Positions 5,401-64,000 of a stretch of DNA of 64,000 nt are shown piece after piece. Position 1 is the first letter of the stretch. Every line of letters begins with the position of its first letter. Source of the stretch: Cymbidium sinense (taxonomy: Eukaryota > Streptophyta > Magnoliopsida > Asparagales > Orchidaceae); contig CM038215.1 of the NCBI GenBank assembly GCA_021442155.1, forward strand, positions 273,027,014 through 273,091,013, given 5' to 3'. The position numbers were made by a program, and so were the translations under genes. The notes beneath the pieces are model-generated. The model was not told where the DNA came from. It saw only the letters and a list, made by a program, of their open reading frames with translations, and searched no databases.

Positions 5401-5402
5401 AA

Positions 5403-5930: not shown

Positions 5931-6044
5931 CAAGATGAGTATTATGGAGTCCTAGATTATGAAGTAGAGACCCCTTTCCTACATTTTCATCAATGGCACC
6001 TTATTATATATGTGTTCAATCATGTACATTGTTTAGCATGAAGC

Positions 6045-31340: not shown

Positions 31341-31599
31341 TTCTTATCCTACCTATTGTAGTTCTTATCTTTTCCTTTCTGATTTAGAATCGAACTATCC
31401 TTCTCTGAATCAATCAGGTTCACCTCTTGAGATTGAATTGAAACCAACTGACTTTGAGGATCCCATAGGAGAAGTTAAAGGTATGTTCTATTAGAAGGTA
31501 GAACTTTCCACAAGCTCATCATTCTAAGAATTCATTGAAGTCAACTTACACAGTGACAAAGTTGTACCTCCTAAGGTAGCACCTCAGGATAAGGGTAAG

Positions 31600-32070
31600 C
31601 AAGTCATTGGTTCTAGTGAGCAGATAGCCCCTCCACAGGATGCTCCACCCATGGATATGCTTATGGAGGACCAAGCTAGAGATGATTACAATGTCCTAGC
31701 TCACCTTATAAAGTTTCCAACTAAGTTAAGCATATACGACGCCCTTTTCTTATCTAAAGAGATGAGGGAATTTGCCTTATTTGATCTAGAGATATACTTA
31801 GCTCAGCTGACTGCTACTAAAAAGAAGGCATGCCACTCAAAGGATATCTTAGGAGTTAAATTCAGTGAGTAAAACTTACTCTTATGGATGACCGAGCATA
31901 ATCATCTCTTTACATTATAGGATGTTGATACAAAGCTAAAGTTTTGGACCTGTGTAGTCAACATTATGAGTCTAAGAACCCTTGCCTACTTGAGGATCGA
32001 CATCTCCAAACTCTAAAAAGAAAGGATGATGTTGAGAGGATTTAATGAACAAGATGAGAGGGCCTTATGT
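31600..32070 (+). pseudogene. protease remnant, element B
   Basis: 31651-31872 encodes MDMLMEDQARDDYNVLAHLI and LSIYDALFLSKEM, homologous to element A at 2875-3090. After a deletion that removes the catalytic loop, VVNIMSLRTLAYLRIDISKL follows (31945-32015), then FNEQDERALC. The frame is cut at 32070 by a fragment of a C-family LTR. Confidence 0.75.
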
Positions 32071-32212: not shown

Positions 32213-33340
32213 TCGAACGTACTAGCAATTTTTCCCTTACTTTACATGGATGAATAAAGTAGGATTTATATTAAACCAGGTTCTTAGGTTCCCTATGGAG
32301 GCAAGCCTCCATAGTTAATTACATCTTAGCAAATGAAATTTCCTAAGAATACTCTCGATTAAAGTAGACAATTATCATCTCTAAATATTTCAAGGTTAGA
32401 CTATCAAAAGATTAGTTGTATTTGGAAAATCAATTGGGAAAGTTCAAGGAGAAGACTTAGTTTTGGAATCCAAATGAAATAAGTAAGAAATGCTCAAGAT
32501 ACTAGGAAGCTTAGTGAGCATTCCAATCTATCCTATGGTTGGGCTTTATAATTTTGAGGTTGAGGAGATTTATATGTTCTAGGTTAAAATTTTATTAGAT
32601 TACTAAGGCTTATAATCCACCAACACAAGGTTGTGGGAATGCTTAAGAGGTAAGGATTTATGCTCGTAGCCTAAAGAAAATAGCTATGTCAGATCCTAAA
32701 TCAAGGGAGCTTTAGTATGAGCTAAAGCATGACTTAAATCTAAGAGATAGGTGGACATTAGGGTTTACCTCTACAAGTGAGAATAAATTGTCTGACTTCT
32801 AGACTTATAATCACTTGGAGTGTCTGCCAGCTAACTCCTACTACAATTTTAAAATGAAGTAGTCTGGTTTTATGAAATGCATGATAGCCATGATAGTTAT
32901 TTAATTAGAAAGAGACTAAAGTCCTAAACACACTCTCTATGAGACTAGAGCATGAGTGGTATGAGCATATGACTTAATCTATAGATGCAAAATATTTTCA
33001 AATTTTATTTCATTTTAGACATATCATTTTGATAGAGGCTTTAGGATTTCTTATGACTAAATGCATGATGAAATAGGTTATGGGTCAAATCAATTAGAAG
33101 ATGGTGTTCTCCACCATAATGGATGCCCTCATAGGTCAAGCATTCCTTTATGGTGCAAGGATGGAGATCCTTCATGTTCAAGAGACAAAGAATATGCATG
33201 CATGATGTGAAACATACAACCATACAACTAAGGGGTTGCTAAATATTTTAATTATCTTATTTATGTATTAGGCTTTATAATGAGGTTATGAGTTGTTTAA
33301 AATTTAGTTATGAGTGATTAGTTGGGTAAAAAAGTTATTT
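32213..33340 (+). other. eroded pol end and 3' untranslated region of element B
   Basis: 32213-32640 has no recognisable domain. 32640-33340 corresponds to 6740-7420 in element A: shared tracts are CTTATAATCACTTGGAGTG, AGACTAGAGCATGAGTGGTATGA, GGTGTTCTCCACCAT and GGTTATGAGTTGTTTA. It leads directly into the right LTR. Confidence 0.65.
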
Positions 33341-35905: not shown

Positions 35906-38900
35906 AAGTTGATTTTAGGTTTTATTTTTTAGTTTAGTTTAGGTTTTTTGTTTATTTTGTTTATTTAGTTTAGGATTAGCTTTAGTTTATTTAAGGTTTA
36001 GGTTTTATTTTTTTTAGTTTAATTAATTTTAGTTTAGGATTAGGTTTTTTATTTTATTTATTTTAGGTTTAGGTTTTTTAGTTTAGGGTTTAGGTTTTAT
36101 TTTATTTTATTTTATATTTAGGTTTTTTTATGATTTATTTTATTTTTAGGTTTTATTTTAGTTTAGGTTTAAGTTTTAGGTTTTAGGGTTTGTGCCTAGG
36201 GTAAGGTAGGGCAAAGAGTTTAGGTGAGTTGTAAGTAGGGTGGGTTAGTTTAGGGTTTACATTTAGAGAATTTAGGATTTACTAGGGTTTGGGTTTTTAA
36301 AAAACAATTTAAGTAAACTTGTAAGTTTAGGTTAATTTAGTTTATTTATCTTAGTTTTTATTTAATTTTGATTATTATTATTATTTTTTATTAGGTTTTT
36401 TTATTTACTTTGGTTTATTTATTTTAGGTTTATTTATTTTAATTTAGAATTTTTATTTTAGTTTATAATCAAAGTTTAGGAGTGTTTATGTTTATTTTTT
36501 TAGTTTAGTTTTATTTTTATTTTATTTTATGTTTAGGTTTTATTTTTCTTTAAGGTTTAGGTTTGAGGCTCAGTGCTCAGTAGTGGGTTGGGTTAGGGGT
36601 TTGTGGGTTTATTTTTTTTAATCTTTGAAATTAAGCATAGTGGTAGGTTTAGGTTTATTTAGTTTATCTGTTAGTTTTAGAATTTTATTTTAGTTTATCT
36701 CAAGTAGGGTGTTTATGTTTATTTTTTAGTTTAGTTTTATTTTATTTTATTTTATTTTAGGTTTTATTTTCATCTTAGGTAGCTCAGGTTTAGTGTTTAG
36801 GGTTTAGTTCAGGGTTAGGGTTTTTTTTTTTATTTTATAATCAATATACCAGGTTTAGGTTTATTTAATTTATTTTTGTTTAGAATTTTATTTTAGTTTA
36901 TTTTAAAGTGTTTCAGGTTTATGTTTATTTTAGTTTAGTTTTCTTTATTTTATATCTTTATGTTTAGGTTTTATTTTTTATTTTTAAATTTAGGTTTAGG
37001 TTTAGGTTTGGGGTTTAGGGTTTATGGTTAGGGTTTTATTTTTTTATTTTATAAAATAAGTATTAGGTTTTATTTTAGTTTATATTTTATTAATTTTAGT
37101 TTATTTTATTTTTTTATTTTTATTTATGTTTATTTTTAATTTTATTTTTATTTAGCTTTTTATTTAGTTTTTATTTATTTTTTATTTTAGGCTTATTTTC
37201 TTTTTATTTTAGGTTTAATTTCTATTTTATTTAGGTTGGTTATTTTTAAAATTAGTTTTGGTTATTTATTATATTATTTATTTAGTTTTATTTTATTCAT
37301 TTTTAGGTTTAGTTTAGGTTTATGTTTTAATTTATTTATTATTTATATTATTTTGGTTAAGCATTTTTTATTTATTTTATTTAGTATTTTATTTTAGGTT
37401 TAGGTTTTAGCTCTAGTAGGTTAGTTTAGGGTTTAGGGTTGTAGGTTGTTTGGAGGAGGGTTTAGGTTTTTTTTTTAAAAAAATTAAGAAAACCCAGGTT
37501 TATGTTTATTTTTATTTATTTATGGTTTTTTTTATTTTATTTGGTTTATTTTAGGTTTTTTATTTTTATTTTATTTTTCAAGTTTAGGTTTAGGTTTATG
37601 TTTAATTTCAGTCATTTTATTTTTATTTTATATTTTAGGTCCATTTTTAGGTTTAGGTTTAGGTTTCATTTTATTTTAGGTTTAGGTTTTAGGTTTTATT
37701 TTCTAATTTAGCATTTATTTTAGTTTAGGTTTTTATTCTAGTTTATTTTATTTAGTGGGTTGAGGTTTAATTTATTTTAGGTTTAGGTTTATTTATTTTT
37801 TAGATTTTTAGTGTGCATATTTATTTTGATTTTAGGTTTTGGTTTTAGTTTATTGTATGGTTTTATTTTGATTATTTTGATTATTTTTAGTTTAGGTTTA
37901 TTTAGTTTATTTTATTTTATTTAGTCGTATTGAGGTTTAGTTTATTTAGGCTAGGTTTATTTATTTTAGTTATTTATTTCATAGTGGAATATTTTATTTT
38001 GTTTATCAGGTTTTAGATTTTATATTTCTTGTAGGATCTTATTTTATTTATTTTAGGTTTATTTTTAGGTTTTGGTTTTATTTAGATTTATTTAGGTTTA
38101 TTACATTTTTTATTTTTGGTTTTCTTTATAGATTTATTTTAAGTTTATTTTAGATAGCCTAGTTTATGTTTTGTATTATATTAGTTTAGTTTTATTTTTA
38201 TTTTATCTTATTTTAGTAGTCAGCACCAGTATGTCAGCTCAGTAGTCAGATCTTTATTTTTATATTTTTATTAGGTAATGCCTTTATATTTATTAGGTCT
38301 ATTTAGTTTAGAGGTTACACTTAGGGCCCAGGGCCCATGGCCCAGGTTGTGGCTCACTGGGGCCCAGGGCCCAGGGCCTGGGGTGGAGTAAGTTAGGGCA
38401 CATGTGGCCTGGTTCAGGTTTAGTGGGTTTAGTTTTTTTTAATTTATTTATCTTATTTAGGGTTTAGGGCCTAGAGTTTAGGGCTAGGTTTAGTGCTGGG
38501 TGGTGATTAGGAGGTTGGGTTAGTTTAGGTCAGGTTTAGGGCCTAGGTTTGGGTTTTTTAGGTTTACAAAAGCAAACCCGACAAGTTTTAGGTTTTTAGT
38601 TTATCTTTATATTTAGGCTTATATTATTTAATTTAGTTTACTTATCTTAAGTATTTATCTTTATGTTATTTTAGTTTATGTTTAATGATAGTTTATGTTT
38701 ATTTTAGTTTAGTCATTTTAATTTAATTTAGGTGTATGTTTTTATTTAGGTCCAGGTTTTTCTTTTATTTTAGGATTAGGTTTAGGTTTTATCCAGGTTT
38801 ATTTCACTTAGGTTTAGTTTATTTTAGTTTGTTTTTTTTTATTTTAAGTTTATTTAGGTCTAGTTTATTTATTTTAGTTTAGGTTTAGGTTTTATTTTAT

Positions 38901-43472: not shown

Positions 43473-44135
43473 CTAGAGCAAAAAGTCCACAGGAATAAAG
43501 TTATTCAAAATCCTCCAAGCTAAAATTGAATAAGAAATGGGAATGATATTGTTCCAAAGTTTAATGAAAATATTTGAGGAGTTTTGTTTATCTCTAATAA
43601 AATTCCAAACCTCTTTAAGAACAAAATCACCATTGTAAGAAAGCTTAAAGAGAATTTGGTTAGGTTTGTTAGAGAAAATAAAGATATTTCTAAAGTTATC
43701 TAAAAGAGAAATAAGGATATAATTCTCAAGTTTATTTTCATTCCAAGTGTTCTTATGCCAAAAAAAGTTAAATTTGATAGCTGTAGTAGAGTGGGTAGAT
43801 AAAAGAGAGTCAATAGAGCCATTGCCAATCCAATTGTCTTGCCAAAAGAAAGAAGAACTGGATTGAATACCCCAACATATTAAAGGTTCAACAACCAATT
43901 TAATGGAGCAAAACCTTTTCCAAACCGGAGAGTCACAAAATTTATAAGCACATATAAGAGGGTGTTTACCTTGGAAATAGTTTTTCATCATAAAATTAGC
44001 CCAAAGGCTATCATTCTTTCTAAAATTCCACCGAAGCTTATGAGAGAAGGCATTAATAGCTTCATGAATCGGTTTGCAACTGAGGCCACCTTCACCCAAA
44101 TGACCACAACATTTATGCCAGGAAGTCCAATGCAT
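43473..44135 (-). pseudogene. LINE ORF2 zf-RVT-type region
   Basis: A 220-codon open stretch typical of the segment after RT in plant L1 ORF2. It contains GGLSCKPIHEAINAFSHKLR, FFWQDNWIGNG and LWNNIIPISYSILAWRILNN, the last being the usual zf-RVT context (W..I.P.K...F.W). It is the longest intact piece of this LINE. Confidence 0.8.
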
Positions 44136-44199
44136 TCTTTTAGTAGAATTATTGGATCCCCAAAAAATTTAATTAAGCAAGCGATCAATTCTGATAAGA

Positions 44200-46699: not shown

Positions 46700-48170
46700 T
46701 TTGGGAGGGATGTTTTTAACATTTTTTATCTTTTTTGCATGATAACTTTTTGAAACCATTTCTTTTTCCTATAGAATCATCATCGGAGAAGGATTTAGCA
46801 ACATTTTTCATAGATTTGGTGGAAGTCTCCTAAATAGAAGTGAGTTCTCCTTCTTCCAAGCCATTAGAATTTTTTAAAGGCAAATGAACATCCAAGTTTA
46901 GGAGCCAAAGATTTATTAAGAAGGCAAGTGTGAACATCAATCCCTTCTTCTTCAATACCCAAATTATTAGACAAAACTAAATCTTTTTGAGAATTTAAAT
47001 CATCCTGAAGTAAAGTAAAGTCAAATTTTTCAAACTAAATATCATGAGAAACCAAAGCCATATTCTCCATTGAATTCAAATGATGCATAACATTGATATC
47101 CTTATTAATATTTTCAAGTAAAGCTTTAATTTCATCAATCAAGATTGGTAAAGATGCTGGGATTGACTCAGAGGAAAAAGAATCATCATCCAAAAGTTTA
47201 GAGAAATTATTATTTTCCACATTAGAAACCTTCAATTTCATAGAAGAAATAAGTGGTAAAATAGCCTTATTAGGAACATTCAATGAATCATTTTTTTTCT
47301 GAATTAAATTTTTGATATTTAACATTGCTCGGCCTAAGGTTAGGAACAATAGTTTCCTTAATAAGAATTTTCTTTTTTAGGTGAGGATGCAGAATGAAAC
47401 ATTCAAAATTATTGTGCCCGTGGAATTTACATTGAGAATAAAAGACAACAAAATTTTCAAAATCAACTTTCTACATATAACCGTAATTTTAAGATCCCAA
47501 CCAGATTTCTTTGGGGTGTTTCTTGATAATGTCTAATTCAACAAGGATTATAGCCACAAAAGGTTGAGATTTCATAGCCATTGCCTGATCAATTTGCAAC
47601 AGTCGACCAAATAAAGCAACCACAATAAAAAGAAATAGATGATTAACAAAATAAATTCACATATTGGGAAGAGAAATCCAAATCGGAATGATTGGGTCCT
47701 TAATATCAAAGAGTGAAATCCATTTCGGCAATATCATTTGGCAATTGAAAATAAAATAAGAATGATGAGTAAAAACATGTGAGTAATCCAAATCATTCGT
47801 TAACTGAATAAAAAAATGGAAGGGATCAATTAAACAAATCATAAAAGCACCCAAAAGTTTCAGACTATTAAAGAAAGAGCGAATGTTTTCCATCCTACAA
47901 AGAGTAAACTTTCCAACTAAAGTAAATTCAAACAGCTTAACAAGCTTTTCAACAATAAGATCAGAGCACATAACCATAGGCATGCCTCGAAAAGAAGTCA
48001 AAACAACTTCCATGGACTCGCCTGAATAGATATCCTTACTAGTGAGGATGTCTTTGAATGATTTTAAAGCAGCCAAAGCCAAGGTAGTTGATGCCCTAGT
48101 AGGATCCATTGATCCCGCTTCCCATAAATCATGGGAAGATGCCCACCATGTCACCCCAAGCAAAAAATAA
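46700..48170 (-). pseudogene. LINE ORF1 (DUF4283 plus zinc knuckle)
   Basis: The open stretch 48163-47657 encodes the DUF4283-type N-terminal domain of plant L1 ORF1: LVGKFTLCRMENIRSFFNSL, GAFMICLIDPFHFFIQL, YFIFNCQMILPKWISLFDI and PIWISLPN. A zinc knuckle follows at about 47455-47415 as YSQCKFHGHNNFEC. The first Cys of the usual CCHC appears to be Tyr. A linker (47349-47035) with acidic and Ser-rich segments completes it. ORF1 is the RNA-binding partner of the LINE particle. Frame breaks lie between the parts. Confidence 0.8.
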
Positions 48171-48295
48171 GAAAGCAGCCATCACCATTCCAGAAGGAAT
48201 AGTGAGAATCATGCCAAACCATCAAGCTGAAAAGCCAAAAATGAGAGGGGAAAAGGGAAATCCGGTGACTGCAAGAGGCTGAGGGCCCTAGGGGG

Positions 48296-48602: not shown

Positions 48603-48666
48603 TTTTAACCGAGAACAAATTCAGATTCAACATTCTTTCTGATTTCATCAACCAAGTAACACACGT
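48603..48666 (-). pseudogene. 3' UTR end of the GRP7-like retrocopy, inverted copy
   Basis: Read on the minus strand this is GTGTGTTACTTGGTTGATGA, AAGAATGTTGAATCTGAATT and TGTTCTC followed by a short A run. It is nearly identical to 20640-20705 at the end of the retrocopy. It stops exactly where element C's LTR begins, so element C is inserted in it and the rest should lie beyond that element. Confidence 0.8.
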
Positions 48667-51600
48667 TGACCTCACTTTGGAGTAAGTTCTCAACCTCCTT
48701 TTCTTAGACCTAGGAACCTTCTAGACACTAAGGTTTCTTTAGTCATAAGACACTTCTAGAGATTATGTGAACACTTGACCTAATCCTAGAGACTTAGAAG
48801 GGTTAATCATAGGATTAGGCCATGCCTTAGGGACTTAGGAAAATCACCTACCCTATAGCCTAAACCCAATCCATGTACACCTTCTTAAATTCAATTCAAA
48901 TCCAAAATTTTAAACCAAACCTCAAACTTTCAAATCCAAATCCAAGTCCAAACTCAATTCCAAATGATTGAAACCCAAGATCAAATCCAAACTTGAAATC
49001 CTTCATAAGCTTTAATCAACCTTCATGAACATAGCCAATATTCCATCCAATTCAATCCAAACTCAATTGATTTTCTGATAAATCAATTGTACCTTCAATT
49101 ATCTTCTCAAATATAAATGAAATATAAATTCAAATAGCCAAAACAAAATCCAAAATCAAATCAAAACCCAATTTAAACCTTTTAATCCATTTCCTTGAGA
49201 TTGGCCAAAACCCATATAAATCAAGCCAAAATCAATAGATTTTCTCTTTAATCAATCATTCCTTCAATCATCTATTCAAATATAAATAAAACCTACAATC
49301 ATCCACTCAAAATAAAAGTAACCCAAGTCAAACCCAACTTAGCCCATTTGACTTGAATTATTCAAATGAACCAAAACTCATTTGAATCCAAAACCATTGC
49401 AATTGAATTTATATATCAATCTCAATATATATATAAACTCAACTAAATAAAGCTAACTAAATCCAATTGCTTCACTTGACCCAAAGAGGCCAATTTGACC
49501 TACATGAACCAAAATCCAATTCAATCCAAATCAAAGTGAATTAAGCCAATCCAAAGTTCATGTCATGATTGTTGATCACCCTAGATGATCATATAATTAG
49601 GTCAAACAAAGTCAACCTAGTTGTTGACCAAGTCAATTTTTAGCCTATATGAACCCAAACTAGCAAATAACCTAAGCCAAATCCATTGAAAACCAATGAT
49701 TCAAATTAACCCAAAATCAACATTTAAACTTGATTTGACCTTCAATTGAACCAAACCTAGCACAATTGGCCCTCTTGACACTAATTGACCCAAATTGAAA
49801 TAAAGGGTTAAATTAGACTAAACCCAAATTAAATCTAAATTAAATCAAACCAAACCTTACAATCCTCTACAAATAGTCATATGAACTTGATATAAACCTT
49901 GGTTTGACCTAATTTGACCAATTGGTTAACCTAACCTATTTTGACTCAATTTGACCCAAATGGGTCAAATTGTGCCATACCTAACCAAATGAACTCCAAA
50001 TGACATGAAATTTGGTCCAACTTACTTTTGACTCATTTCAAATATTCCAAAATAAAATTCAATGCTAAATGACCACTTTACCTTTGGGCTAAGGGCATCA
50101 CATAAGACAAAACACCTATGTAAATGGTCATTTCTTTTCCTTGGCCACTTAGCACTCATCAATTATTCCACCTAGGCTCCAAGGACACTGTCCAACCTAA
50201 CCCAAGAGGTTGTTGGGTCAACTATGACTCATGGGGAGGTGAAATCACCTACCCTCCCCCATTGGAACACTTGGCATGAAGGACCTACACTTCTCTTTGC
50301 TAGGACACCCACTTGTCCTTCATAGTATCCATCTTCCATGCCTTGGCAAACAAATTAAGCAACCTAAGGAGAATCCTAACCACCCCAAGCCAAGGACACC
50401 CACTTGGAGCCAAAAAACTTTATGAATGTGGTGATTTTCTGCCATTGCAAGGAGATAGAAGGTAGAGAGGCAAAAACTCTTCCTCACACACTCATTTCAC
50501 TCTCTTAGAGCTTCCAAACCAACCATCAACCATTCCCACTTGATTTTTGGGCAAAAGCCATCAAAATCAAGTGGATTCCGGTGAGGAAGCAATGACCATT
50601 GGTGGATACATTATTTTGAAGTGAAGAAAGAGCCCAAACCCATTCCAAAGCTTCTTCTTGTACTTAAGAGCACGTTTGGATCATCACTGCGGCTAAAATT
50701 CATTCTTGGTGAGGTAATTTTCAAGAATTGTAGCTGGCCATAGGTTCTTTTATTTGTGACAGTTTTTGCTTGATTTTAGGAATTTTCTTTAGATTACCCA
50801 TGCATTTGTTTTATATTTTCCATCATCCCCGCACATTTTGAGTGCTTTCTAGTGAAGATCACCAGAAAATTGAGCCTAAAATGAAGTTTTTTATTCAATT
50901 TTTTCATAAGAATCATAAAAATCTTGCCCATAATAGTGTTCCATCTGCCTCTTCCACTAGATTTCCTGTCAGCCATCTAATCTTCTATTCAAGGAAATAG
51001 ACAACTTAGATCATATGGAATGATCGTGAGTGCAGTTCAGATCACGGATCATGTGTATCGACGACCATCTAATGATCGATGGCCACCGATGCATCCTGTC
51101 ACATTCGCTCATCTCATGATGTGGCACCACAGCCACTCACGCCGGTGCCATGTGGTCTAATGGGTCCGAATGTTATGGTGTTGACTGGGTTAAGTAAGAT
51201 ACTTGGGATTTTCTGCTTTTTATAAATTAATTAAAAACACTTAAAAATTCAAAAAATCACAAAAAAATAAAATACTTACATAAAAATTGCAAATAAGGCC
51301 TCATTGGATTTGTCTTTCCGAAAGGAATCTAATGAAGGTAAAAGCCTCAAATCTTACTGAATATTTTGAGCTTAATTTAAGTTTTAGGGAAAATAAAATT
51401 TCATTAATTAAACCAAAATGACAAAATAGATTGATTTGAGTTTTTTAGAGATTAAAAGTGAGATTAAAATCTAACTACCATACAAATTTCAAGTTAAAAG
51501 GATTTCTGGATTGGGGGATATTGCATTTTGAAGTTCAAATAGTTAAAATACATTAATGAAATTTATAAAAATCATGGAAAATCATTTAAATCAGTTGAAA

Positions 51601-53701
51601 CTTTTGAAAATTATAAAAAATCATAGAAAAATCCTAAAAATGTAAGTATATATTTGTTTGAAGGTATTTCAGAGGAGATTGAATTAAAATTGATCCCAAT
51701 TAATTTTGAATAGTAATTAAGGCTTATTTTGGTTTAATTAAATACTTAATAAGCTTAATTACTCTGTAATTACCGAAGTAATAAATCTGAAACTTTATGA
51801 GGTTGATTAATGGGATGACCTCAGCCTCCCATAATTTTCTTGGGATTTATTGCTTGGTTAAATAAGGGAAATTGGTCATCTTAACCTTAATTACTTTCTT
51901 AATTAATTAGATAATTAATTAATAATCTAAACAGTAAGGAAATCATTAATTAAGCTTATTAATCATTATGAAATAGTGAATGGGCATGGGGAATGAGATT
52001 GGGACCTCTTCCCAATCTTTTCCCTAAGTCCATTTCACTTGAATGAAAATTAATTAATTTGGGATTAATTGATGGTTTAATTCATTAATTAAATTGCTTA
52101 ATTAATCAATTTGAAACTATTATCACATGGAATCTTAATTAATCAATTCATGGGTAGATCTTTAGGTGTTCAATAATCCTAAAGACATTTAAGAAATTAT
52201 GGTTAACAAACATGTGTGGAAAACCAAAGTACTTAATTAAGTTTCTTAACTTAATTAATCACTAATAATGAGCCAATTGCATTAGGCCTCTTTCATTTCT
52301 TAGGTTCATTGCTAATTTAATTTCCAATGTATGTACATATATCATGTAGGCTCATAATTACTTGGTTAATTAAATTAAGGCAACATAGGTAAGGGTTAAT
52401 CAATTAATGGATTTAATGATAGTAAACAACCTAATTAACCCATAAAATCAACTTAATTACTTTTAATTAAATGAAATTAAATAACAAACATGGGAATGGG
52501 TTATGATCAGAAAACTTTCCCTCATTTATTCAAACCAAATGAAATATGAAATTGAAAGTGATAATTAAAATCCTTGGTTTTCTTTAAATGCTTTTATTTT
52601 ATTTTATTGTACTTAGAACTTAATTTAATTGAATGAAATCACATGTTTTGCTTATTCATTCCTTTCCAATCATGTTAAATGTTGTATGTCATTTGAAATC
52701 ATACATTTATCTTTTCAAAATTAATTAAATCAAATGGTTTTCCTTATGTCAAGCTTGCATGTTGATTTAATTTATAATATGTGTATTATTACCACTATTA
52801 AATCAAAATGTATTTTCCTAAGCTTATAAATGAATGGTTACATATGCTATGATTGCTAGTTATAAATACATAAGAGATGTATGTGATTATAGCTTAAATG
52901 TATGAAGTGAAGCTCCTTTCCTTTTATTCATGTATTGATTTATGTAAGTGAGAATGTTAATGGGTATATAGTCTGGACATCCCGAGAATAAGAAGGTTTA
53001 GTTAGCGCCAAGTAGGTCATTTGATCACCTCACTTCCTTGGTTTAATAATGACACATACTCCATTTGATTTCATTCTTATGTATTTCAATACTAGAATTT
53101 GGATGAGGCTTTAATTCATAAACCTAAATGATTCAATCAAATTAAATATCATTTTTTTGCATGATTTTCATTTCAAATTATGACAAATTATGAATACATG
53201 TGTATGTATTTAAGAAAAGTGGTATATAGTCTGGACATTATAGGAATATGAGGCTTTAGCTAGCCCTAAGGAGTCATTTGATTACCTCACTTTCCTGGTT
53301 TAACAAAGGCAAGTACTTGGTTAGGTCTTTTATGCATACATGTGTTTATTTAATTAGAGATTAGTAATCCTTCCTTTTTACTAAAAATACTTGCATTTTC
53401 TATTGTTCAAGTGATTGAATTAATTGATCATTTGATTTTGAGCTCTCTTTCTTATGTTCATGCATGTAAATTTACATATGGTTTGAATTTAATGGTATAT
53501 AATATGACATCCAGGAATATGAGGCTTTAGCTAGCCCCAAGGAAGACCCATCATGGCTTAGGAGTCCTTATTAGGTGATTAGGTCAATTATATGGTGATA
53601 ATTTCTATCTTTTGAGATAGTGCATCTTTCCTTAATGTCATATCTGATCATTTCAATAAGTACCCCTAAGATCTCATGGTGTCCCATCTCAAAAATAAAC
53701 A
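48667..53701 (+). repeat. 5' LTR of element C, ~5.03 kb
   Basis: TG...CA ends. Zones in order: short unique start; AT-rich 2-copy repeat (49080-49290); TTGAC-rich zone (49320-50040); coding-like but stop-filled middle (50.1-51.2 kb); TAATTAA-rich zone (51.2-52.7 kb); three inverted-orientation LTR boxes (52963-53552); and a ~150-bp terminal segment also found inverted at 32071. LTRs of several kb are typical of Ogre/Tat elements. The promoter is not identified with certainty. Confidence 0.8.
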
Positions 53702-53711
53702 CCATATTTTT

Positions 53712-53727
53712 TGGCGACTCCACTGGG
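53712..53727 (+). promoter_or_regulatory. primer-binding site candidate
   Basis: TGGCGACTCCACTGGG, starting with the TGG expected opposite a tRNA CCA end, eleven bases after the LTR end. It resembles the primer sites I know from Ogre/Tat elements, which are assigned to tRNA-Arg. The tRNA assignment is from family knowledge, not checked here. Confidence 0.7.
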
Positions 53728-53868
53728 AGGTTCCTCTCTCCATCTCTAGTAGCAATTATTGTCTCCAACATCGATTGTGGACTTGTATTTTATATGGGTC
53801 CAACACTATCTTTCTTTTTTTGTTGGCACTTAGCCTATTTCATCCTTAGGTTGAGCTAACATCCTTTA

Positions 53869-55268
53869 GGTTTTAAGACCTCACTCCATGTAGGTCTTAA
53901 AACCCCTATTGTCCCCAATAGTTAAAAAAAATTGAATTAACTAAAGAAGATGATTAAATATTTAGAACCTCTTTACCATTCTCTTGGTGAGGCAAGGTTC
54001 ATCTCATACTTAAGAAAATAAACTCTTTGCAAAAGATATATACTTTCAAAAGCACTTCTCAAATTAAAATTCTCATGACAAAAGATCTATTTAAGATAAC
54101 CAAACCTCATGCAACAATATCCATGATTGTTGCATGGAGGTTCTTTTCAAAATTTAAAATCAAATAATTTTAAAATCCTTTTTCCAAAAGCACATATTTC
54201 AAAATAGTAATCTCCATTCAACACACCTAAGCTTGTTGAATGAAGATTTTATTTTCAAATAAGATCATGACATAAAATTGAAATTTCATTTAGAAAATCC
54301 TACATGTGCTAAGTTATTTCTCTTTTCAAAAGCAACATCACACACAAATATCCCATCTTTAAAAATCAAAAAGAAAAATATAATTGATTTCCATTTTACA
54401 TACATAAATTTGTTAAATGAAAGTCCCCTTTTCAAAGTCATTAAAATTAAAACACATTTGTATTCCATTTGACATACCCAAATTTGTCAAATGAGAATTC
54501 CCTTTTCAAAATCAAAGATTGGACTCTACTTAACATACCCACATTTCCTAAGTAGAGTTCCTTTTAAAATCACAAATAAATCAAACACACTTGAACTCCA
54601 TTTAACATACCCAAATTTGTAAAATGAGAGTCCCACCTTTTCAAAATTGAAAACAAATTGAACTTTATTTAACATACCACATTTGTTAAATAGAAGTTCT
54701 CTCTTTCAAAAAAACAAAACAAACTCATCAAACACATTTGATCCTACTTAACATACCAAATTTATTTGGGACTCATTTTTTTAAAATCAAATCAAAATAC
54801 ATCAAACACATTGTGCTTCACTTAGCATACCTAAATTTGCTAAGTAAGAATCCCATTTTCAAATTGAATTAAACAAATCAAACACATGACAAACATCATC
54901 ATAAACAACAAAAATGCTTTCAAAATTTTTTTTCAAACATGCAGTTGAATCTCATTTAGCATACATAAATTTGCTAAGTGAAGATTCTAAAATCAATTTC
55001 AAAACAAAGTCAATTGACCCTCCATTTAACATACCCAAATTTAATAAATAAGGGTCCCAAACATAAAATCAAATTCAAATGTGAGCAATGGAAGCATCAA
55101 TTAAGAGCCTCTCCAAAACATTTGAACCCCATTCAACATACCCAAATTTGTTGAATGTGGGTTCTAAATTTAAATCAAATTCAAAGTCTCTCCTCCAAAA
55201 AAAAATTTCAAAATCTCTCCAATATTTGAACCCCATTTAGCATACCTAAATTTGTTAAATGAGGGTTC
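53869..55268 (+). repeat. array of ~14 hairpins with covarying stems
   Basis: Successive ~40-nt inverted repeats share one plan: an outer stem of ~6 bp, a one-base bulge, an inner stem of ~8 bp, and a ~12-nt loop mostly ATACCCAAATTT. Positions: 53869-53904, 53965-54000, 54103-54142, 54209-54248, 54386-54425, 54460-54500, 54521-54560, 54593-54633, 54660-54699, 54813-54852, 54947-54987, 55016-55056, 55124-55164, 55228-55268; a broken one lies near 54737-54775. Spacers are A-rich with TTTTCAAAA. Outer arms differ (GAACCC/GGGTTC, GAACTT/AAGTTC, GAATCT/AGATTC, GACCCT/AGGGTC) yet pair. It lies in the leader of element C. Confidence 0.85.
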
Positions 55269-56104
55269 CAATTCAACAATCAAATCAACTAAATAATTCA
55301 AGTCAACAACATTCAAGTGAAGGTCATATGGTTCTCTTTCCGGAATGTGAGATTCTAGCCCTCCGACCATCGGTAGAAAGGAGGTGCGAGCAAGAAGACT
55401 TCTTCATCAGTTTGATCTGATCGATTTTGAGTTTCCCTAACCAAAGGAGAAAGGCCATAAATTTCCTTCAAGAGCTAAGAATAAGATCAATAAGGATTTT
55501 TGAGTTTGTATTATTTATTCTAGATAAGTATGCCTCAAATGATTTGAATTCTAATTCCTAAAAGAAGACAACTCTCAAAATGATAATCATAATAATGATC
55601 GTAATCCATAAAATAGCGATGCGATGGACTTGATGCATTTAAGGATTCCAACTCGAGTAGAGGTACCCCTATTTTAAACTTTCATGGTGTTACTATCAAC
55701 AAAGATTTAGAATCATCAAACATAATAGAAGAAATTTTGGGCACCATAAAGAGTAGGTAGACATCAATTCTACCTCTCTTTGAAGATATCACAAAAGCCA
55801 ATTGTTGTAGTGGCAGGGTCCTACCACTTTGATCAACACCATAGCAATAAGCAAACCAATCAATGGAAATAATCAAATTCTAATCCTTCTTAAGATACAC
55901 CTCGTAATCCAAAATAAGGGCATTAAACTATTCTGAAGGTTAATCTTAAGGTCCTAAACTATCACGGAAGGTTGCCCCTAAGCTAAAATAATGAGTGCAC
56001 CTCACCTTCTCTAAGGAGATAGAGGTGATTAATTGGAACTTAACCTAATTCTTCCTTGCTCGGTTAGTGGCAACCTCCTCAAGTCTTACTCAACATAGAA
56101 TATC
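55269..56104. other. element C interior, no recognised domain
   Basis: Between the hairpin array and the purine-rich tract, where gag and protease would be expected. Reading frames are short and stop-filled on both strands; I recognise no motif. Confidence 0.4.
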
Positions 56105-56275
56105 TATGGAAAAGAAAGACAAGCTATCCCCTCCAGAGAACACAATATAAATAAAGACTAAAAAAAGGAGAGAATGAAAAAATGAAACAATAAGAAAATA
56201 AAGAAAAAAAAAATGAAAAGAATGAATGAAAAAATAGAGAAGAAGAGAAAAAAGAAGAAAAGAGAAAAGTAAAGC
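56105..56275 (+). repeat. purine-rich tract of element C
   Basis: AAAGAAAGA-type sequence like the Lys-coding spacer at 3602-3712 in element A, at the equivalent place upstream of RT. Confidence 0.55.
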
Positions 56276-56556
56276 ACCAATAATACAGATTGATTTGGAA
56301 TCCAAAGGATAAATCATGTGTATGAGGTGTAAATTCAAAGAAAGGAGAGAAAAAAATATATATATGAAATAAATTTTGAGTCTACTTTTGACAAGTCTTT
56401 GGAGTAGATAATAGTAAAACAAAAAGTTCTAAAAGGATAATTCATGAAAGATGTGACTAGAAACTGTGTGGGTATGCGAGCACATTGACTCCAATTCTAC
56501 TATCTCATGATATTATTATAGGATTGTAAGTTAAGAGTTGTGCTAACCTCACTAAC

Positions 56557-56560
<4 letters not shown>

Positions 56561-56630
<70 letters not shown>
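56561..56630. repeat. (AT)35 microsatellite
   Basis: An uninterrupted AT dinucleotide run of 70 bases. Open frames that read IYIYIY across it are artefacts. Confidence 0.97.
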
Positions 56631-56632
<2 letters not shown>

Positions 56633-57194
56633 AGATATCAAATTTCCACTTCATCTCTTTCTTCAAGCTCGAAGAGGATTCAGCTTGTAGATAAACCTTC
56701 AAATGAAGTAATAAAATCATATTTTGCCTAGTCTACCTACTTTTGCTTAAAGAATTTGAAGACTTTCAAGTAGAGGATACACTCCACGAAGTTGAGAAGA
56801 AAATTAGATCATCAACCAATGAGTTTTAAGAGATTAACCTTAGAACATAAAGGTAGTCCACCCACACTCCCAACATCCATATATGATAAGTTAGAAAGAA
56901 AATGACAATGACTTAGTTAGGTTACTTTTTAAAAGGCTGCTTTACCTAAGACCGTAATGAGGTGCCCAATACATCTTTAAAGGTAGCAGTCTACAAATTC
57001 AAAATTGAACCTATTGCTATTCCTACTTTGCAAACATTTGATGTGAACATTTGCACCAAGAATAAGATCATAGTTTGAGGTCAACCTTATTGAAGAAGAA
57101 AGATGCTATCATGATTATCCAAGATTATGCCCTCAAAGGAAGGACATTCAAATCCACATACATCGATTCAAGATTTAGTTAGGCATGTCTTGAA

Positions 57195-57570
57195 GATGAA
57201 TCCACATTACCTATTTTAAATTTGATAGCAGACATAGCCTCTTTACATGCAGTCTCCTCATTCAAGGATGGGTTGAATGATGCTAGAGGATGAGAGGTCA
57301 TTTGCACTTATAATTTCCATTGGAATTTACCACTATAAGGTCATGCCTTTCTCTAGTCACTAGGGTTAAAGAAAAAGGAAGACCATCTTTACGATCTGAG
57401 TAGTTGTCTTCGATTGGTTATGACACTACAGCTTGAAGTTGAATCCCCTAAAGTATACAATTAGAATGACTTTAGGGGAGTTTCTAAGGCTTGTAGTAAA
57501 GCATCATGGGATAACAAAGATTGATCTAAAAAGATTAAAGTGACATTAGAGATGCCCAAGATTCTACTTA
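57195..57570 (+). pseudogene. reverse transcriptase remnant of element C
   Basis: Tat-type RT is recognisable across frames. DES-LPILNLIADIASLHAV leads to SFKDGLND, with the first catalytic Asp at 57267-57269. YKVMPF follows at 57334. A KEDHLYDL segment (about 57380) corresponds to the stretch after the catalytic YVDD box, which itself is lost. LKLNPLKYTIRMTLGEFL and HHGITKIDLKRLK (57433-57540) are the RT palm/thumb connection. Stops and at least three frame changes are present. The domain fixes element C's coding strand as +. Confidence 0.72.
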
Positions 57571-57869
57571 AGGAGAAAGATTTCAATTAATGTTGAATAT
57601 AGATGGTTTAAACTCTTTCAAAGTTAGTCTATCTCAAAACTTTTTAAATCAGAATTCTACTTCTGATCATTGAAAGGACTACCTTGGTGCTTCGAAGGAT
57701 GGAAAGTAGTTTAAACTACTATGATTGGGGAGCCGATGCTTCCAATCAAAAACACTATTTAAAGAAATACTATCCTTAAAATAATGTTTGAAAATAATTA
57801 TCATCAATAAAAAATCCTATCTTTCCATTCATCAAATCCTTCTTCATTAGAAGCATTATTTGCTTATCT

Positions 57870-60704
57870 ATGAATCTACCATGATGTGTTAGATAGGTGT
57901 AAGATAACCCAAGTGGCATCCTATCCTTCATCAAAACAAACACAAACTACACATGATTCTATGGTGCTATAGTAAGAGAACCCAAGAGGGCATCCTATTT
58001 CGACTAGCATAAGTTAGGTATAAGACAACCCGAGCAACATCCTTTTGGTGGAGTCACATTGCCCCTCTAGCACCATTTCATCCACTCTTCGATGTGTTTA
58101 GGGTAGGTGTAAGGAACCCGCATCCTATCCTTCATCAACACAACATAAACACAAACTACAAAATCACATGAACAAATACACATCTTTTATCTCGGCTACT
58201 TTGATGTGGGATAACACCCCACCCTCCCTCACTTATTAGTCGCTTGGTGACCGACGTGTTACCCTACTAGTGAATCACCCTGGTCCCTTGTTCGTGAAGA
58301 TGTAAGTTTCTACGCTTTCCTTCCCCGACCTAACCACTACACACTAAGCCTTGATAGCATGGTAGGCCTTACTGTGCAGTTGTTAAGCTACCCTCATGTT
58401 GGCTCTGTTTAAGAATATGTAAGTTTGCTATGCCTTCTTCTTAAACTAGTCATCATGAACTGACTTGGTTGAGTATATCTGACAAACACACATACACATC
58501 TTCTATCTTGGGCTACTTTGATCTGGGATAACGCCCTCGCATTCACTCATTAGCTAGGTCGCTAACATACTACCCCTAGTGTCCACCCGTGATCCCTTAT
58601 TTAGGAGGATGTAAGTCTACTATGCTTTCTTTCGACTTGCTTGTACACACATGAGTGCGTTGTTAGCATGGTAGGCCTTACGGTGTCGTCATTAAGCTAC
58701 CTTCATGTTAGCTTCATTCAAGAGGATATAAGTATACTATACACTTTCTTCTTGGACTAGCCATCGTGAACTGACTTGGTCGAGTAGTAGATTAGGGTAA
58801 GGCCCCAAAACTTTCTTCTTGACTACTTCAAGTCTGGTCTAGTCCTTCTTTATGACTCCCTACTTAGTCCCTTAGGTTTTAATTTGTTGCCAAAATGGTC
58901 ACCCCAGCAGTTGTTCCTCACTTTGGAAGATATAAGTTTGCTACACTTTCTTTTTAAGTACAACCATAGCCTTAGGTTGGATAGCACCTGTCGAGCTGAT
59001 GACAAACTATCTCAATAATGAGTTTCACTTTAAGGATATATAAATCTAAATGGCTTCTTCCTAGATTGATTATCGTGCACTGATGGGAACCTTAGGTTGG
59101 TTAGTTTTTGCTATGCTGATAGTGACCCACTAGATGGATACACCACTCAGGGTAGATATAAGTCTGGTACGCTTTCTCCTTGAGTTGGCCACCATACACC
59201 TACAGGCTTTCTTATTTATAGGGTCCAAGATAATGATCCTAGTGGCACCTCCCCTATGTGGGCACTTTATTTAGATCACGTCCTTTGCAACCTCATTTAG
59301 ACACTACCCGGGTTACTACTGGATTGGAGAATCCTCCTTTCCTAGTAACCACCTCTGTGGTTGGAGATTTTGTTCAGTGGATGCATAGATTCTCCCTTGG
59401 TCCAATAAATCTAAGATAGGTCTAGCCAACATAGTCCCTTAGTGGTCCCTGCACACCAAGAGGTCCATACAAGAAACAATATATATATATATAAGTTCTC
59501 CATGACACTCTCTCAATATATCCTAGTCGGTTCAATCTATTATTCCACCAACAAAGTTACCTCTGGTCATCCTGCTTTGAAGATGTAAGTCTATGCATTC
59601 TTTCTAGCATGACAATTGAACACGATGCTCCTAGTTTGAGTTCAATTTATTGCGCATCTAATGGGTTACCCCAGTAGTTTTTCCTTGCTTTGGAGATGTA
59701 AGTCTACTATGCTTTGTCCAACAAAGCTATTGCACACCAAAAGGCACCCCTTAGGTCAGATAGTCCTACCCTTCAGCCCATAAACTACCCCTTTGGATCG
59801 ATAATCGATAAAGGCCAACATAGCCCTTCTGTGGTCCATCACATCAGGGATCTATCAAATCAAATTAAAACAAATTAAAATATAACAAATCAAAATTAAA
59901 CAAATCATTGAAATTAATCTTGACTACTTTTGAGTTGACATAAGTCCCTCAATAACATTCACTCACTAGTCACCCCTAGGTCAGGTTTAATTTGTTGCAG
60001 ATCCAAAAGATCACCCCAGCGATTGATCCCTGCTTTAAAAGATGTAAGTCTACTATACTTTCTTCTAAGTACAACCTTTTCACCAATAGGCCCTTAGTCG
60101 GATAGTCCTACCTTGTGTCGGTAGACTATCCCTTTGGATTTGTAAATTTGAGATAGGTCAAGGCCGACATAGCCCCTTCTGGGTCCATCGCACACTGGAT
60201 CCATAATAAACTAAATTTGAAACCAACCTTCCCAATGGAGTCAAATTAAAACATATAGAACAAACCAAACTTCTCCCAGGAGGCACAAATCAAATTAATC
60301 TCCTAGGAGCCATAAGAAATACCATCAAACTCTTATCCCAAGCAGAGCCCAAACCCTTCCCTAGTGGAAGGCTCACATTCCCAATCCCTCGATTATAGAT
60401 TCTTATCCCCAGTGAATACACACCCAAATAAATCATTTTCCTAATGAAACTCAAATTCATATCCCAAGTGGATAGCTTCAACTTACTTCCCTAGTGGAAG
60501 GTTCATATACTCAATCCCCCACAGATTCCATCTCTCTTATGCCCTTCGCATAAATAGATTCACTTTGCACTAAGATTGTGATTCTATCTACCTTTCAAGT
60601 TTAAGTATAGATCATTTTTGTTAGTGTTTTTCTTTGGACATTGTTGATCATCAATACACATGTGGTGCCTTGTTAGTTACACCACACCTATTGGGGTCCT
60701 TTGT
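57870..60704 (+). repeat. tandem-repeat-rich 3' internal region of element C
   Basis: Several families of decayed direct repeats follow one another. A ~310-bp pair lies at about 58178-58486 and 58493-58797 (TACTTTGAT-TGGGATAAC start). Near-identical GATGTAAGTCTACTATGC-like boxes occur at least nine times between 58290 and 60060. A ~340-400-bp unit with CCAACATAGCCC occurs at about 59395, 59790 and 60130. A ~132-bp pair with TTCCCTAGTGGAAGG lies at 60356 and 60488. No gene. Tandem repeats between pol and the 3' LTR are known for Ogre-type elements. Confidence 0.7.
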
Positions 60705-63700
60705 TGACCTCACTTTGGAGTGAGTTCTCAACCTCCGCTTCTTAAACCTAGAACCTTCTAGACACAAGGTTTCCTTATAAGACACTTCTAGAGAGTAGGT
60801 GAACACTTAACCCAAGCTAGAGACTTAGAAGGGTTAATCATAGGATTAGGCCATGCCTTATGGACTTAGGAAAATCACCTACCCTAAAGCTTAAACCCAA
60901 TCCATGTACACCTTAAATTCAATTCAAATCCAAATATCCAACCAAACCATAAACTCAATTTCAAATCCAAACCAAAGTCCAAACTCAATTCCAAATGATT
61001 GAAACCCAAGATCAAATCCAAACTTGAAATCCTTCCCAAGCCCTTTAATCAACCTTCATGAACTTCACCAAATTTCTATCCAATTCAATATGAACTCAAT
61101 TGATTTTCTTATAAATCAATTGTACCTTGAATTATCTTCTCAAATATAAATGAAATATAAATTCAAATAGCCAAAACCAAATCCAAAATCAAATCAAAAC
61201 CCAATTTAAACCCTTTATGCCATTTCTTTGAACTTGGCCAAAACCCATCTAAATAAAGCCAAAATCAATGGATTTTTCTTGAATCAATCATTACTTCAAC
61301 CATCTATCCAAATATAAATGAAACCTACAATCATCTAGTCAAACCAAAATCAACCCAAGTCAAACCCAACCTAGCCTATTTGACTTGAAATATTCAAATG
61401 AACCAAAACTCATTTGAATCCAAACCAATTGCAATTGAATTTATATCAATCTCAAATCTATATATAAACTCAACTAAATCAAACTCAACCCAAAGTAAAG
61501 CCAACTACATCTAATTGGTTCACTTGACCTAAAGTAGCCAATTTGACCTACATGAACCAAAATCCAATTCAATCCAAATCAATTAAGCGAATCCAAAGTT
61601 TATGTCATGATTGTTGATCACCTTAGGAAGATCAATTGATATAAATTGGGTCAAACTAAGTCAACCCTTTAGCCTATAGAACCCAAACTAGCCAAATTGC
61701 AACCTAAACAATATCCATTGAAATTGATGATTCAAATCAACCCAAAATCAATATTTAAACATGAATTGACCTTCAATTGAGCCAAACCTAGCCCAATTGG
61801 CCTCTTGACCCAAGCTAACTAAATTGACATAAAGGGTCAAATTAGACTAAACTCAAATTAAATCCAAATTAAATCAAACCAAAGCATACAATCCAAATAG
61901 TCATATGAACTTGACCTAATCCTTGATTTGACCCAATTTGATAAATTGGTCAACTAATTTTACCCATTTTGACCTAGGTCAAATTGAGCCAAACCTAACC
62001 AAATGAACTCCAAATGACATGAAATTTGGTCCAACTCTTGACTCATTTCAAATCCCAAATCAAATTCAATATCAAATGACCACTCTACCCTTGGTCTATG
62101 GTATCACATAAGACAAAAACACCCATGTAAATGGTCATTTCACTTCCTTGGCCAGTTAACACTCATCCATTGGTCCACCTAGGCTCCAAGGACACTCCAC
62201 CCAACTTGACCTAAGAGGTGGTTGTCACATGACTTATGGGGAGGTGAAATCACCTCACCCCCATTGGAACACTTGGCATGAAGGACCTCCTCTTTGCTAG
62301 GACACACACTTCTCCTTCATAGCATCCACCTTCCATGCCTTGGGCAACCAAATTAAGCCACCTAAGGAGAATCCCAACCACCCTAAGAAAAGGACATCCA
62401 CTTGGAGCCAAAAACCACCATGAATGAGGTGATTTTTGGCCATTGCAAGGAGACAGAAAAATAGAGAGGCAAAAACTCTTCCTCACACACTCATTTCACT
62501 CTCTCAGAGGTCTCAAACCAACCAACAACCATTCCTATTTGTTTTTGAGCAAAACCATCAAAATCAAGTGGATTCTAGTGAAGAAGTGGTGTCCATTGGT
62601 GGATACATTATTATGAAGTGAGGAAAGAGCCCAAACCCATTCTAAAGCTTCTTGCACTCGAGCACATCATCATCACCACCATCAAAAATCATCCTCGATG
62701 AGATAATTTTCAAAAACCATAGTTGGCCTTAGGTTCTTTTATTTATGTTGGTTTTTTGATCAATTTTAGGAATTTCCTTCAGATAACCCTTGCATTTTAT
62801 TTTATTTATTTTACATCATACCCATGCATTTGGAGTGATTTTTGATGAGATCGCCAAAAAATTGAGCATAAAATGAAGTTTTTCATTCAATTTTTTTCTC
62901 AAGAATCACAAAAATCCCATCAAGAATAGTGTTTCATCCATTCGCCATATTTAAGCCATTTGATCTCCATTCAGAGATGGCTTAGATCATGATCATGTGG
63001 TATCGTAATCATGTATAAATATCATCGTGTATATGACCCAATCAAATATACATCATCCGCATTCCTTGTCCATATTCTAGCTCATCTATAGGCATTGATG
63101 GCATCATCCCACATATCATGTGGTCGAATCAAACTAAAGTAGGTTAAGTAAGAAATTGGATTTTCTAATTTTAAAAATTAAACTTAAAACTTCAAAGTTC
63201 ATAGAAAATAAAATACTTAACTAAAATTTAAAAAGGTTTGTTGATTGGTCTTTAGGAATCAATGAATCCAAAAGCCCAAAATTTTACTGAATATTATGAG
63301 CTTAATTTAAGCTTTAGAGAAAAATAAAATTTTATTAATTGAACTAAAATGACACATTAGATTGATTTGAAATTCTCAGAGATAAAAATTGAGCTTAACA
63401 TCTGCCTACCATAAAAATTTTAAGTAAAAAAGATTTCTGGATTGGGAAATATTACATTTTGAAGTTTGAATAATTAAAATAAATTAATGGACTTTATAAA
63501 ATCATGGAAAATCATTTAAATAGATGGAAAATTAAAACAAATCTAAAAAATGCAAGTATATATTATAAGGTATTTTAGAGGAGATTCAAAGATCCCAATT
63601 AATTTTGAAAAATTAAATTTAATTTGGGTTAATTAAAACTTAATTAACTTAATTACTCTAATTGCATAATTATTAATCCCAAACTTTGGTTGATTAATGG

Positions 63701-64000
63701 GATGACCTTTAATCCCATAATTTCTTAGTGTTACTTGTTAATTAGGAAATTGGTTGTGTTAACCTTAATTACTTTTCTAATTTCAAGCAATTAATTAATA
63801 TTCTAAAAGTAAGAAAATCATTAGTTAAGCTACTCATTTGAAATAGTGAATGGGCATGAATGAGATAACTTTTCAATCTTTTAAGTCCATTTCACTTGAA
63901 TGGAAATTAATGGGATTAATTGATGGTTTAATTCATTAATTAAATTGCTTAATTAATCAATTTGAAACACATGCATGAATTTAATTAATCAATTCATTCA
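60705..64000 (+). repeat. 3' LTR of element C, cut by window end
   Basis: Parallel to 48667-52080 over its whole visible length, about 85-90% identical by eye with many small indels. A clear polypurine tract is not seen directly before it; the flank is TTGGGGTCCTTTGT. Open frames inside (for example 62250-62486) are not conserved in the 5' LTR. Confidence 0.82.

What the first reader, a model, noticed from the sequence alone, without database searches (positions are those of the whole stretch)
53869..55268. Leader of an LTR retrotransposon built from ~14 hairpins with compensatory stem changes
Seen: successive ~40-nt inverted repeats keep stem, bulge and loop positions while stem sequences diverge on both arms together. 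Inner arms: CATTTAAC/GTTAAATG, CATTCAAC/GTTGAATG, CATTTGAC/GTCAAATG, TATTTAAC/GTTAAATA, ATGCAACAAT/ATTGTTGCAT. Outer arms: GAACCC/GGGTTC, GAACTT/AAGTTC, GAATCT/AGATTC, GACCCT/AGGGTC, AATCT/AGATT. Some units pair only through G-U type pairs (CATTTAGC/GTTAAATG at 55234, CATTTAGC/GCTAAGTG at 54953), which fits RNA. The loop ATACCCAAATTT changes little. Simple tandem duplication predicts independent decay of the arms, not co-variation. The array starts ~140 bp after the primer-binding site, so it would lie in the genomic RNA leader. Inference: a packaging, dimerisation, translation-control or host-protein-binding structure not described for this lineage to my knowledge. Alternative: arm-to-arm correction by template switching in DNA.
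Basis: partly seen in the sequence, partly recalled or inferred. Interest (0 to 1): 0.88.

Follow-up and report, generated by a model that had tools for sequence, protein, structure and literature searches.

The report
Hairpin-array leader of plant retrotransposons
A plant jumping gene carries, just after the site where its copying starts, a string of about fifteen small hairpins whose pairing arms change together; many related elements in the same genome, coding and non-coding, carry similar strings, which points to a signal the element's RNA needs in order to be copied.

Summary
Behind the PBS of a non-coding LTR element lie 15 hairpins (53869-55268; one broken by a deletion in this copy). 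In 12 alignable units 159 of 180 pairs are Watson-Crick; tree-aware nulls give 116-126, maximum 148. In the host genome (3.5 Gb, unnamed) 29 fetched close copies keep the array, and 35 of 50 examined loci with the Ogre-like PBS have 9-16 hairpins at ~75% leader identity. Arrays also precede an ORF in protease/RNase H-coding relatives. Among close copies the arms decay independently (G-U 49, A-C 49; 260 one-sided, 3 both-sided changes), so pairing is kept up while the element replicates, not by host DNA repair. Best reading: a cis-acting RNA signal of a Tat/Ogre-type lineage, most likely multivalent Gag binding (packaging/dimerisation), kept by a non-coding derivative. RNA-specific evidence is partial: G-U does not exceed A-C overall (237 v 210), only at one stem position (35 v 1). 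Packaging is inference; correction during reverse transcription is not excluded. Ten literature searches listed no such leader.

The parts
48665..53708 (+). 5' LTR (~5.0 kb) of the element
   Evidence: matches 60703 onward at 84% over 2326 columns; p 0.148, K2P 0.166 over the shared part, 0.08-0.12 in the best 2 kb
53712..53729 (+). primer-binding site TGGCGACTCCACTGGGAG
   Evidence: TTTTGGCGACTCCACTGGG at 53709, shuffles 0; the GGGGA form has 314 exact sites in the own genome, control 0; the GGGAGG form only this one
53869..55268 (+). array of 15 hairpins on G-poor linkers (G 5.2%)
   Evidence: array z -11.4
53869..53904 (+). u01, 13-bp stem, stem sequence unlike the others
53965..54000 (+). 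u02, 6+8 bp, two T-G pairs shared by the close copies
54102..54142 (+). u03
54209..54248 (+). u04
54386..54425 (+). u05
54460..54500 (+). u06
54521..54560 (+). u07
54593..54633 (+). u08
54660..54699 (+). u09
54739..54773 (+). u10, part of the 3' arm missing in this copy, present in the other alleles listed
54813..54853 (+). u11, outer stem poorly paired in the close copies too
54947..54987 (+). u12
55016..55056 (+). u13
55124..55164 (+). u14, fully paired
55228..55268 (+). u15
55270..60702 (+). internal region without recognisable coding
   Evidence: 17 of 46 stop-to-stop pieces of 53700-60702 given to Pfam, no retroelement domain; Tat protease proteins give there only chance-level matches, E 2.8 and 7; collinear and without such matches in two other copies
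60703..64000 (+). 3' LTR, runs off the window

Best explanation
This is the genomic-RNA leader of a non-coding member of a Tat/Ogre-type Ty3-gypsy lineage. The leader is a string of ~10-20 short hairpins (commonest unit: outer stem ~6 bp, a 1-nt bulge on the 3' side, inner stem ~9 bp, a conserved ~10-nt loop like UACYYAAAUU closed by A-U) joined by G-poor linkers. Shown: the hairpins, covariation beyond tree-aware nulls, a recurring loop, presence in coding and non-coding elements, independent decay of the arms among close copies. Inferred: selection acts on the structure in RNA; the loops are bound in multiple copies by element-encoded Gag (packaging and/or dimerisation), so that losing some hairpins is tolerated, and the non-coding derivative keeps the array because it is its ticket into the Gag particles of coding relatives. 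My estimates: structure maintained during the replication cycle ~0.9, RNA-level ~0.75, packaging/dimerisation ~0.4.
For: Covariation beyond descent (150 model-found units from other loci: 11 of 15 pairs with both-sided changes, 1 of 500 shuffles as many; score 0.299 against 0.203, 0 of 500). 35 of 50 examined PBS loci have 9-16 hairpins in 1.5 kb (three shuffles each, 0-8) at median 75% leader identity; 6651 of 7424 stem pairs of all 36 array leaders (window included) are Watson-Crick. Close copies: private variants fall equally on stems (0.326/site) and linkers (0.350), but variants in >=3 copies are rarer in stems (0.053 against 0.102; Fisher p 0.031; >=2 copies p 0.0045). Loop: 81 of 148 loop-10 hairpins fit TAHHYAAATT. 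Arrays precede a shared ORF start (9 of 13 array loci with 3 kb, the query's own included; 0 of 7 non-array ones), in one followed further on by protease homology (E 6e-49) and Pfam RNase H; the non-coding window family keeps the array. Linker G 5-6% on the + strand.
Against: G-U does not exceed A-C overall (6 v 9 in the window copy, 237 v 210 in 435 hairpins). Among pair states commonest in the close copies 20 of 207 are not Watson-Crick (9 G-U, 8 A-C, 3 other), so the source copies were not perfectly paired. In the model-fitted alignment two outer pairs are mostly unpaired (72 and 93 of about 133 rows), perhaps by bulge register. Only 154 of 425 hairpins of other loci hold the loop motif, and the motif also occurs outside detected hairpins (122 of 296). 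15 of 50 PBS loci have no array (L075 has 3 units), so it is not needed by every element with this PBS. No expression, probing or binding data.
Confidence: 0.55

Rival explanations
1. Same RNA array, other function: translation control (shunting or an entry platform for the downstream ORF), RNA stability, or binding of a host protein.
For: The array lies upstream of an ORF start in coding relatives; linkers are G-poor.
Against: The window family shows no coding in three copies looked at (window) yet keeps the array in the 40 scored copies, window included, which favours a function in the RNA's own replication over translation of a product.
Confidence: 0.25
2. Arm-to-arm correction by template switching during reverse transcription keeps quasi-palindromes perfect without RNA function.
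For: G-U is not favoured over A-C overall; RT template switching at hairpins is recalled knowledge; 3 both-sided changes within close copies, all Watson-Crick, two of them transversions, where about one Watson-Crick case is expected by chance (my estimate).
Against: Outer stems covary while the 1-nt 3' bulge beneath them persists in 8 of 12 units (the register of u11 is ambiguous); a copied tract would remove it. T-G stands at I3 in 35 of 156 hairpins against 1 C-A. The loop recurs although correction does not need it. Leader position and G-poor linkers recur in 35 loci.
Confidence: 0.15
3. Simple tandem duplication of one palindromic unit; pairing is left over from recent copying.
For: Units 3-15 are homologous.
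Against: Outer arms are as diverged as linkers (54-59% against 53-58% identity) yet still pair (61 of 72); none of 3000 tree-aware simulations per tree reaches the observed pairing.
Confidence: 0.02
4. DNA-level palindromes: sites for a dimeric DNA-binding protein or cruciforms.
For: Watson-Crick pairing is the same read on either strand.
Against: Arm sequences vary while the loop recurs, the reverse of a palindromic binding site; linkers are strongly strand-asymmetric (G 6%, C 18%).
Confidence: 0.03

Closest known systems
Tat/Ogre lineage of Ty3-gypsy elements (OTA non-chromoviruses)
   Same: LTRs up to ~5 kb, expanded non-coding regions often with tandem repeats, tRNA-Arg among the primers of non-chromoviruses (PMC6317226, passages seen); orchid Tat elements have an Ogre-like PBS antisense to tRNA-Arg (PMC9289625, passages seen). 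A relative here has protease and RNase H pieces.
   Different: The passages seen mention tandem repeats, not a leader array of covarying hairpins.
LARDs (large retrotransposon derivatives)
   Same: LARDs have a core domain without protein products; [quoted passage not shown] Long LTRs as a LARD trait are recalled.
   Different: No repeated hairpin unit is described in the passages seen; here the array is shared with coding relatives.
Retroviral packaging signal (psi, SL1-SL4)
   Same: Stem-loops downstream of the PBS; SL1 starts dimerisation by a kissing-loop complex (PMC3902901, introduction passages); 130 of 150 model-found units here hold a self-complementary AAATTT at the loop.
   Different: 9-16 hairpins, largely of one homologous kind, instead of four distinct ones; loops are A/U-rich; packaging untested.

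Membership tests
Tat/Ogre lineage | PBS of the Ogre type, antisense to tRNA-Arg | tested here: inconclusive
   PBS found and its GGGGA form shared with a protease-bearing locus, but no tRNA sequence was compared; tRNA-Arg comes from PMC9289625
Tat/Ogre lineage | very long LTRs (up to ~5 kb) | tested here: met
   5044 bp 5' LTR
Tat/Ogre lineage | gag-pol coding in this element | tested here: not met
   no coding recognised in the pieces tested; a related array element has protease and RNase H
Tat/Ogre lineage | RT phylogeny, dual RNase H | not tested
   one RNase H piece seen; no tree of RT made
LARD | internal region without coding capacity, as a family trait | tested here: met
   window plus two other copies; in one of these a 203-aa open frame was not examined
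LARD | conserved RNA secondary structure | tested here: met
   (by sequence comparison, not probing)
LARD | mobilised in trans by a coding element | not testable with these tools
   PBS type and leader shared with a coding element are consistent
Retroviral packaging signal | structured leader between PBS and the first ORF | tested here: met
   array between PBS and ORF start in 9 of 13 array loci with 3 kb downstream
Retroviral packaging signal | Gag binding and RNA packaging | not testable with these tools
   needs bench work

The most novel reading that the evidence does not exclude
A repeated packaging/dimerisation signal of a new design: a string of 10-20 mostly homologous hairpins with drifting stems and a fixed self-complementary loop (AAAUUU), acting as a multivalent Gag-binding or RNA-RNA contact array, kept by coding Tat/Ogre-type elements and exploited by a high-copy non-coding derivative of the same genome.
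Probability: 0.3. Interest if true: 0.85.

Novelty: new variant of a known kind. Interest (0 to 1): 0.72.

Why it matters
Packaging signals of plant LTR elements are, to my knowledge, hardly mapped, and how non-coding elements hijack coding ones is an open question. Here one genome offers a leader structure kept in both kinds, with hundreds of natural variants of one hairpin, which makes the question directly testable. It also shows a usable design for dead elements: shared against private variants separate selection before insertion from decay after it.

Tried and rejected
G-U excess as evidence of RNA: counted four ways and not found overall; I1-I6 give 62 v 24, carried by I3 (27 v 23 without it). 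In the model-fitted alignment I3 (58 v 2) and I7 (14 v 3) lean to G-U, I1 beside the bulge to C-A (34 v 1). By tree-counted origins at I2-I8 the difference is small (about 23 v 16, my sum).

Mismatches as decay of this copy: my first reading (LTR divergence predicts 151-164 intact pairs of 180, observed 159) is not kept, because one search shows 20 of 207 pairs already non-Watson-Crick in the state commonest among the close copies, against 23 in the window.

Transition/transversion test for G-U intermediates: about 8 against 5.5 same-branch double changes, uninformative.

Array more conserved than the rest: 3.8% and 4.9% differences against 8.9% and 11.4% in 55400-60702, two copies. Not used as main evidence: copies were picked by array similarity, and 56700-58100, outside the query, is low as well (3.7%, 6.2%). 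The same pick affects the flank comparisons, less the stem-linker one.

Rfam: two sub-threshold miRNA matches, taken as chance. IMG/VR pattern, PBS and protease scans: nothing; one genome contigs match in Calothrix was taken as chance without a look. Antisense frames of the array as protein queries: no candidates. Genome-wide count of the unit: not answered.

Literature: ten searches; no title or abstract start in their listings describes a hairpin-array leader; only passages of PMC7215508, PMC3902901, PMC6317226, PMC9289625 and PMC12513839 were seen. Kalendar 2004 (LARDs) is recalled, not held.

Full report
THE ELEMENT. 48665-53708 and 60703-64000 (cut by the window end) are LTRs of one element: 84% identity over 2326 aligned columns, p 0.148 and K2P 0.166 over the shared part, 8-12% in the best 2 kb. 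TTTTGGCGACTCCACTGGG follows the 5' LTR at 53709. Of 46 stop-to-stop pieces of 45 aa or more in 53700-60702, 17 went to Pfam; none matched a retroelement domain (one WH2 match below its cut-off). Tat protease proteins give there only chance-level matches (E 2.8 and 7). The internal regions of two other copies are collinear (84-87%) and match neither the protease proteins nor the ORF start of coding relatives; their longest open frames, 101 and 203 aa, were not examined. So the non-coding state looks like a family trait.

THE ARRAY. 15 hairpins lie at 53869-55268. Units 3-15 are homologous; u01 and u02 have stems of other sequence but a similar size. u10 lacks part of its 3' arm here; the other alleles listed have it. 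Typical build: 6-bp outer stem, one unpaired base on the 3' side (8 of 12 units), 9-bp inner stem, 10-base loop. Linkers contain 5.2% G.

COVARIATION. With 12 units in hand-set register, 159 of 180 pairs are Watson-Crick; shuffling 3' letters gives 125+-4 (max 138 of 2000), and arms swapped between units 10.1 of 15 instead of 13.25. Null columns evolved on the unit tree (three trees, 3000 simulations each) give means of 116-126 and maxima of 142-148. Since I chose the bulge register, inner stems (98 of 108; null max 96) and outer stems (61 of 72; null max 60) were tested apart, and outer stems again with the best register allowed to every permuted pair (63 against max 60 in 20000). A model built from these units (R1) finds the 12 again, a fragment of u10 (E 1.9) and no other sense-strand place in the window up to E 10.

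OTHER COPIES. The own genome answered after 14 unanswered tries: 3.53 Gb, 7188 candidates, 40 scored (window included), all matching over most of the 851-base query; L003-L031 are 29 of them at 91-95%. Their leaders align along the array, two (L003, L024) only from about 54049 and 54120 on. In the alignment of 30 leaders, private variants hit stems (135 in 414 sites), loops (40 in 136) and linkers (282 in 805) alike; variants in three or more copies are 22, 7 and 82. Stem against linker: p 0.031 (three or more copies), 0.0045 (two or more), private rates alike (p 0.41). One-sided departures from a Watson-Crick commonest state are 49 G-U, 49 A-C and 106 other; of 6042 cells 260 changed on one side and 3 on both, these all to Watson-Crick. 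Among close copies the arms thus decay mostly as neutral, independent DNA; what keeps them paired acts while the element replicates. The commonest state is Watson-Crick at 187 of 207 pairs (9 G-U, 8 A-C, 3 other), so the active source tolerated some broken pairs, as a redundant array would.

OTHER FAMILIES. The PBS form ending GGGGA has 314 exact sites, control 0. I examined 50 of the 100 listed (the first in contig order, not a random draw). A strand-neutral, Watson-Crick-only hairpin finder gives 9-16 hairpins in the first 1500 nt for 35 of 50 and 1-5 for 15 of 50; three dinucleotide shuffles each give 0-8, so at single loci such as L055, L061 and L034 the margin is modest. The 36 array leaders (with the window) match each other in 630 of 630 pairs at median 75% identity; 234 of 540 pairs with non-array leaders match, over a median of 40 nt. 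R1 finds 229 units at E<=2e-5 in the 35 loci and, in the 15 others, low E-values only in L075 (3 places). In 150 of the units 11 of 15 pairs have both-sided changes; that alignment was fitted to the model, so it leans to the structure, and two outer pairs are mostly unpaired in it (72 and 93 of about 133 rows).

CODING RELATIVES. A 48-residue ORF start found after the array of L081 is also found in 8 of the 12 other array loci with 3 kb downstream and in 0 of 7 non-array ones. Further downstream of L081 (L082, 7.1 kb) lie protease homology (E 6e-49 to P0001) and RNase H (PF17917, E 1.2e-12; 7 other pieces given, no Pfam match; a gag-like piece is by eye only). The window's left-edge element encodes the same protease region (2899-3611); R1 finds 16 sense-strand units at E below 0.01 in L083:2149-3563, about 0.9 kb upstream of the window, followed by the same ORF start at L083:3784; its PBS is degenerate, and that leader and protease belong to one element is inferred from order and orientation. 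Array leaders are thus shared by coding and non-coding elements, which is the strongest lead towards a cis-acting replication signal.

RNA OR DNA. For RNA: position between PBS and ORF, strand-asymmetric linkers (A 45%, G 6%), a recurring loop over drifting stems (model-selected units; strand-neutral: 81 of 148 loop-10 hairpins, 154 of all 425), a bulge that survives covariation around it, and T-G standing at I3 (35 v 1; 58 v 2 in 150 units, few independent origins). Against: G-U and A-C are equal overall (237 v 210, p 0.22; chance hairpins of non-array loci 22 v 11), and without I3 27 v 23. I hold RNA at about 0.75.

FUNCTION. A recurring A/U loop on stems whose sequence is free suits a protein that reads the loop, or loop-loop contact: 130 of 150 units hold AAATTT at the loop, 33 expected in shuffled loops (selection by the model favours this motif). 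Gag binding for packaging or dimerisation is my first choice (0.4), then translation or stability control.

KNOWN. The best fit is the Tat/Ogre lineage and, for the element itself, a LARD-like derivative; both rest partly on passages of PMC6317226, PMC7215508 and PMC9289625.

Noticed in passing
1-6000 and L083:1-4600: Tat-type element with a protease region at the left edge of the window; upstream of the window, in L083:2149-3563, lies an array of at least 16 hairpins that probably is its leader.
   Followed up: partly
56700-58100: Stretch without recognised coding that is about as conserved between copies as the array (3.7% and 6.2% differences against 8-15% around it, two copies); a possible second cis element.
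   Followed up: no
58172-58786 and 59640-60192: Pairs of ~200-300-nt direct repeats in the 3' part of the internal region.
   Followed up: no
12950-13690, 49942-49978: Cluster of hairpins around GGTCAAA/TTGACC in an LTR-like stretch, with a related hairpin in the LTR of the studied element.
   Followed up: partly
29735-30976 and 33335-34567: Pair of 86% identical direct repeats 3.6 kb apart enclosing a protease-like piece (31528-32067): another, nested element.
   Followed up: partly
16600-27700 and ~35800-38000: Repeat-rich stretches with extreme GC skew (about -0.9 near 25 kb, +0.7 near 36 kb).
   Followed up: no
43473-44168 and 47657-48181: LINE-like remnants: zf-RVT (below its cut-off) and DUF4283 on the minus strand.
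   Followed up: no
P0001: A protein labelled Klebsiella pneumoniae is 66% identical to the window's plant Tat protease and comes from a 2.2-kb contig: probably plant DNA in a bacterial assembly.
   Followed up: no
L038, L056, L073, L080: PBS-sharing loci without array whose open frames within ~140-400 nt of the PBS share another protein start (by eye, e.g. NTGDVGATIQF in two of them): a sister lineage without the array.
   Followed up: partly
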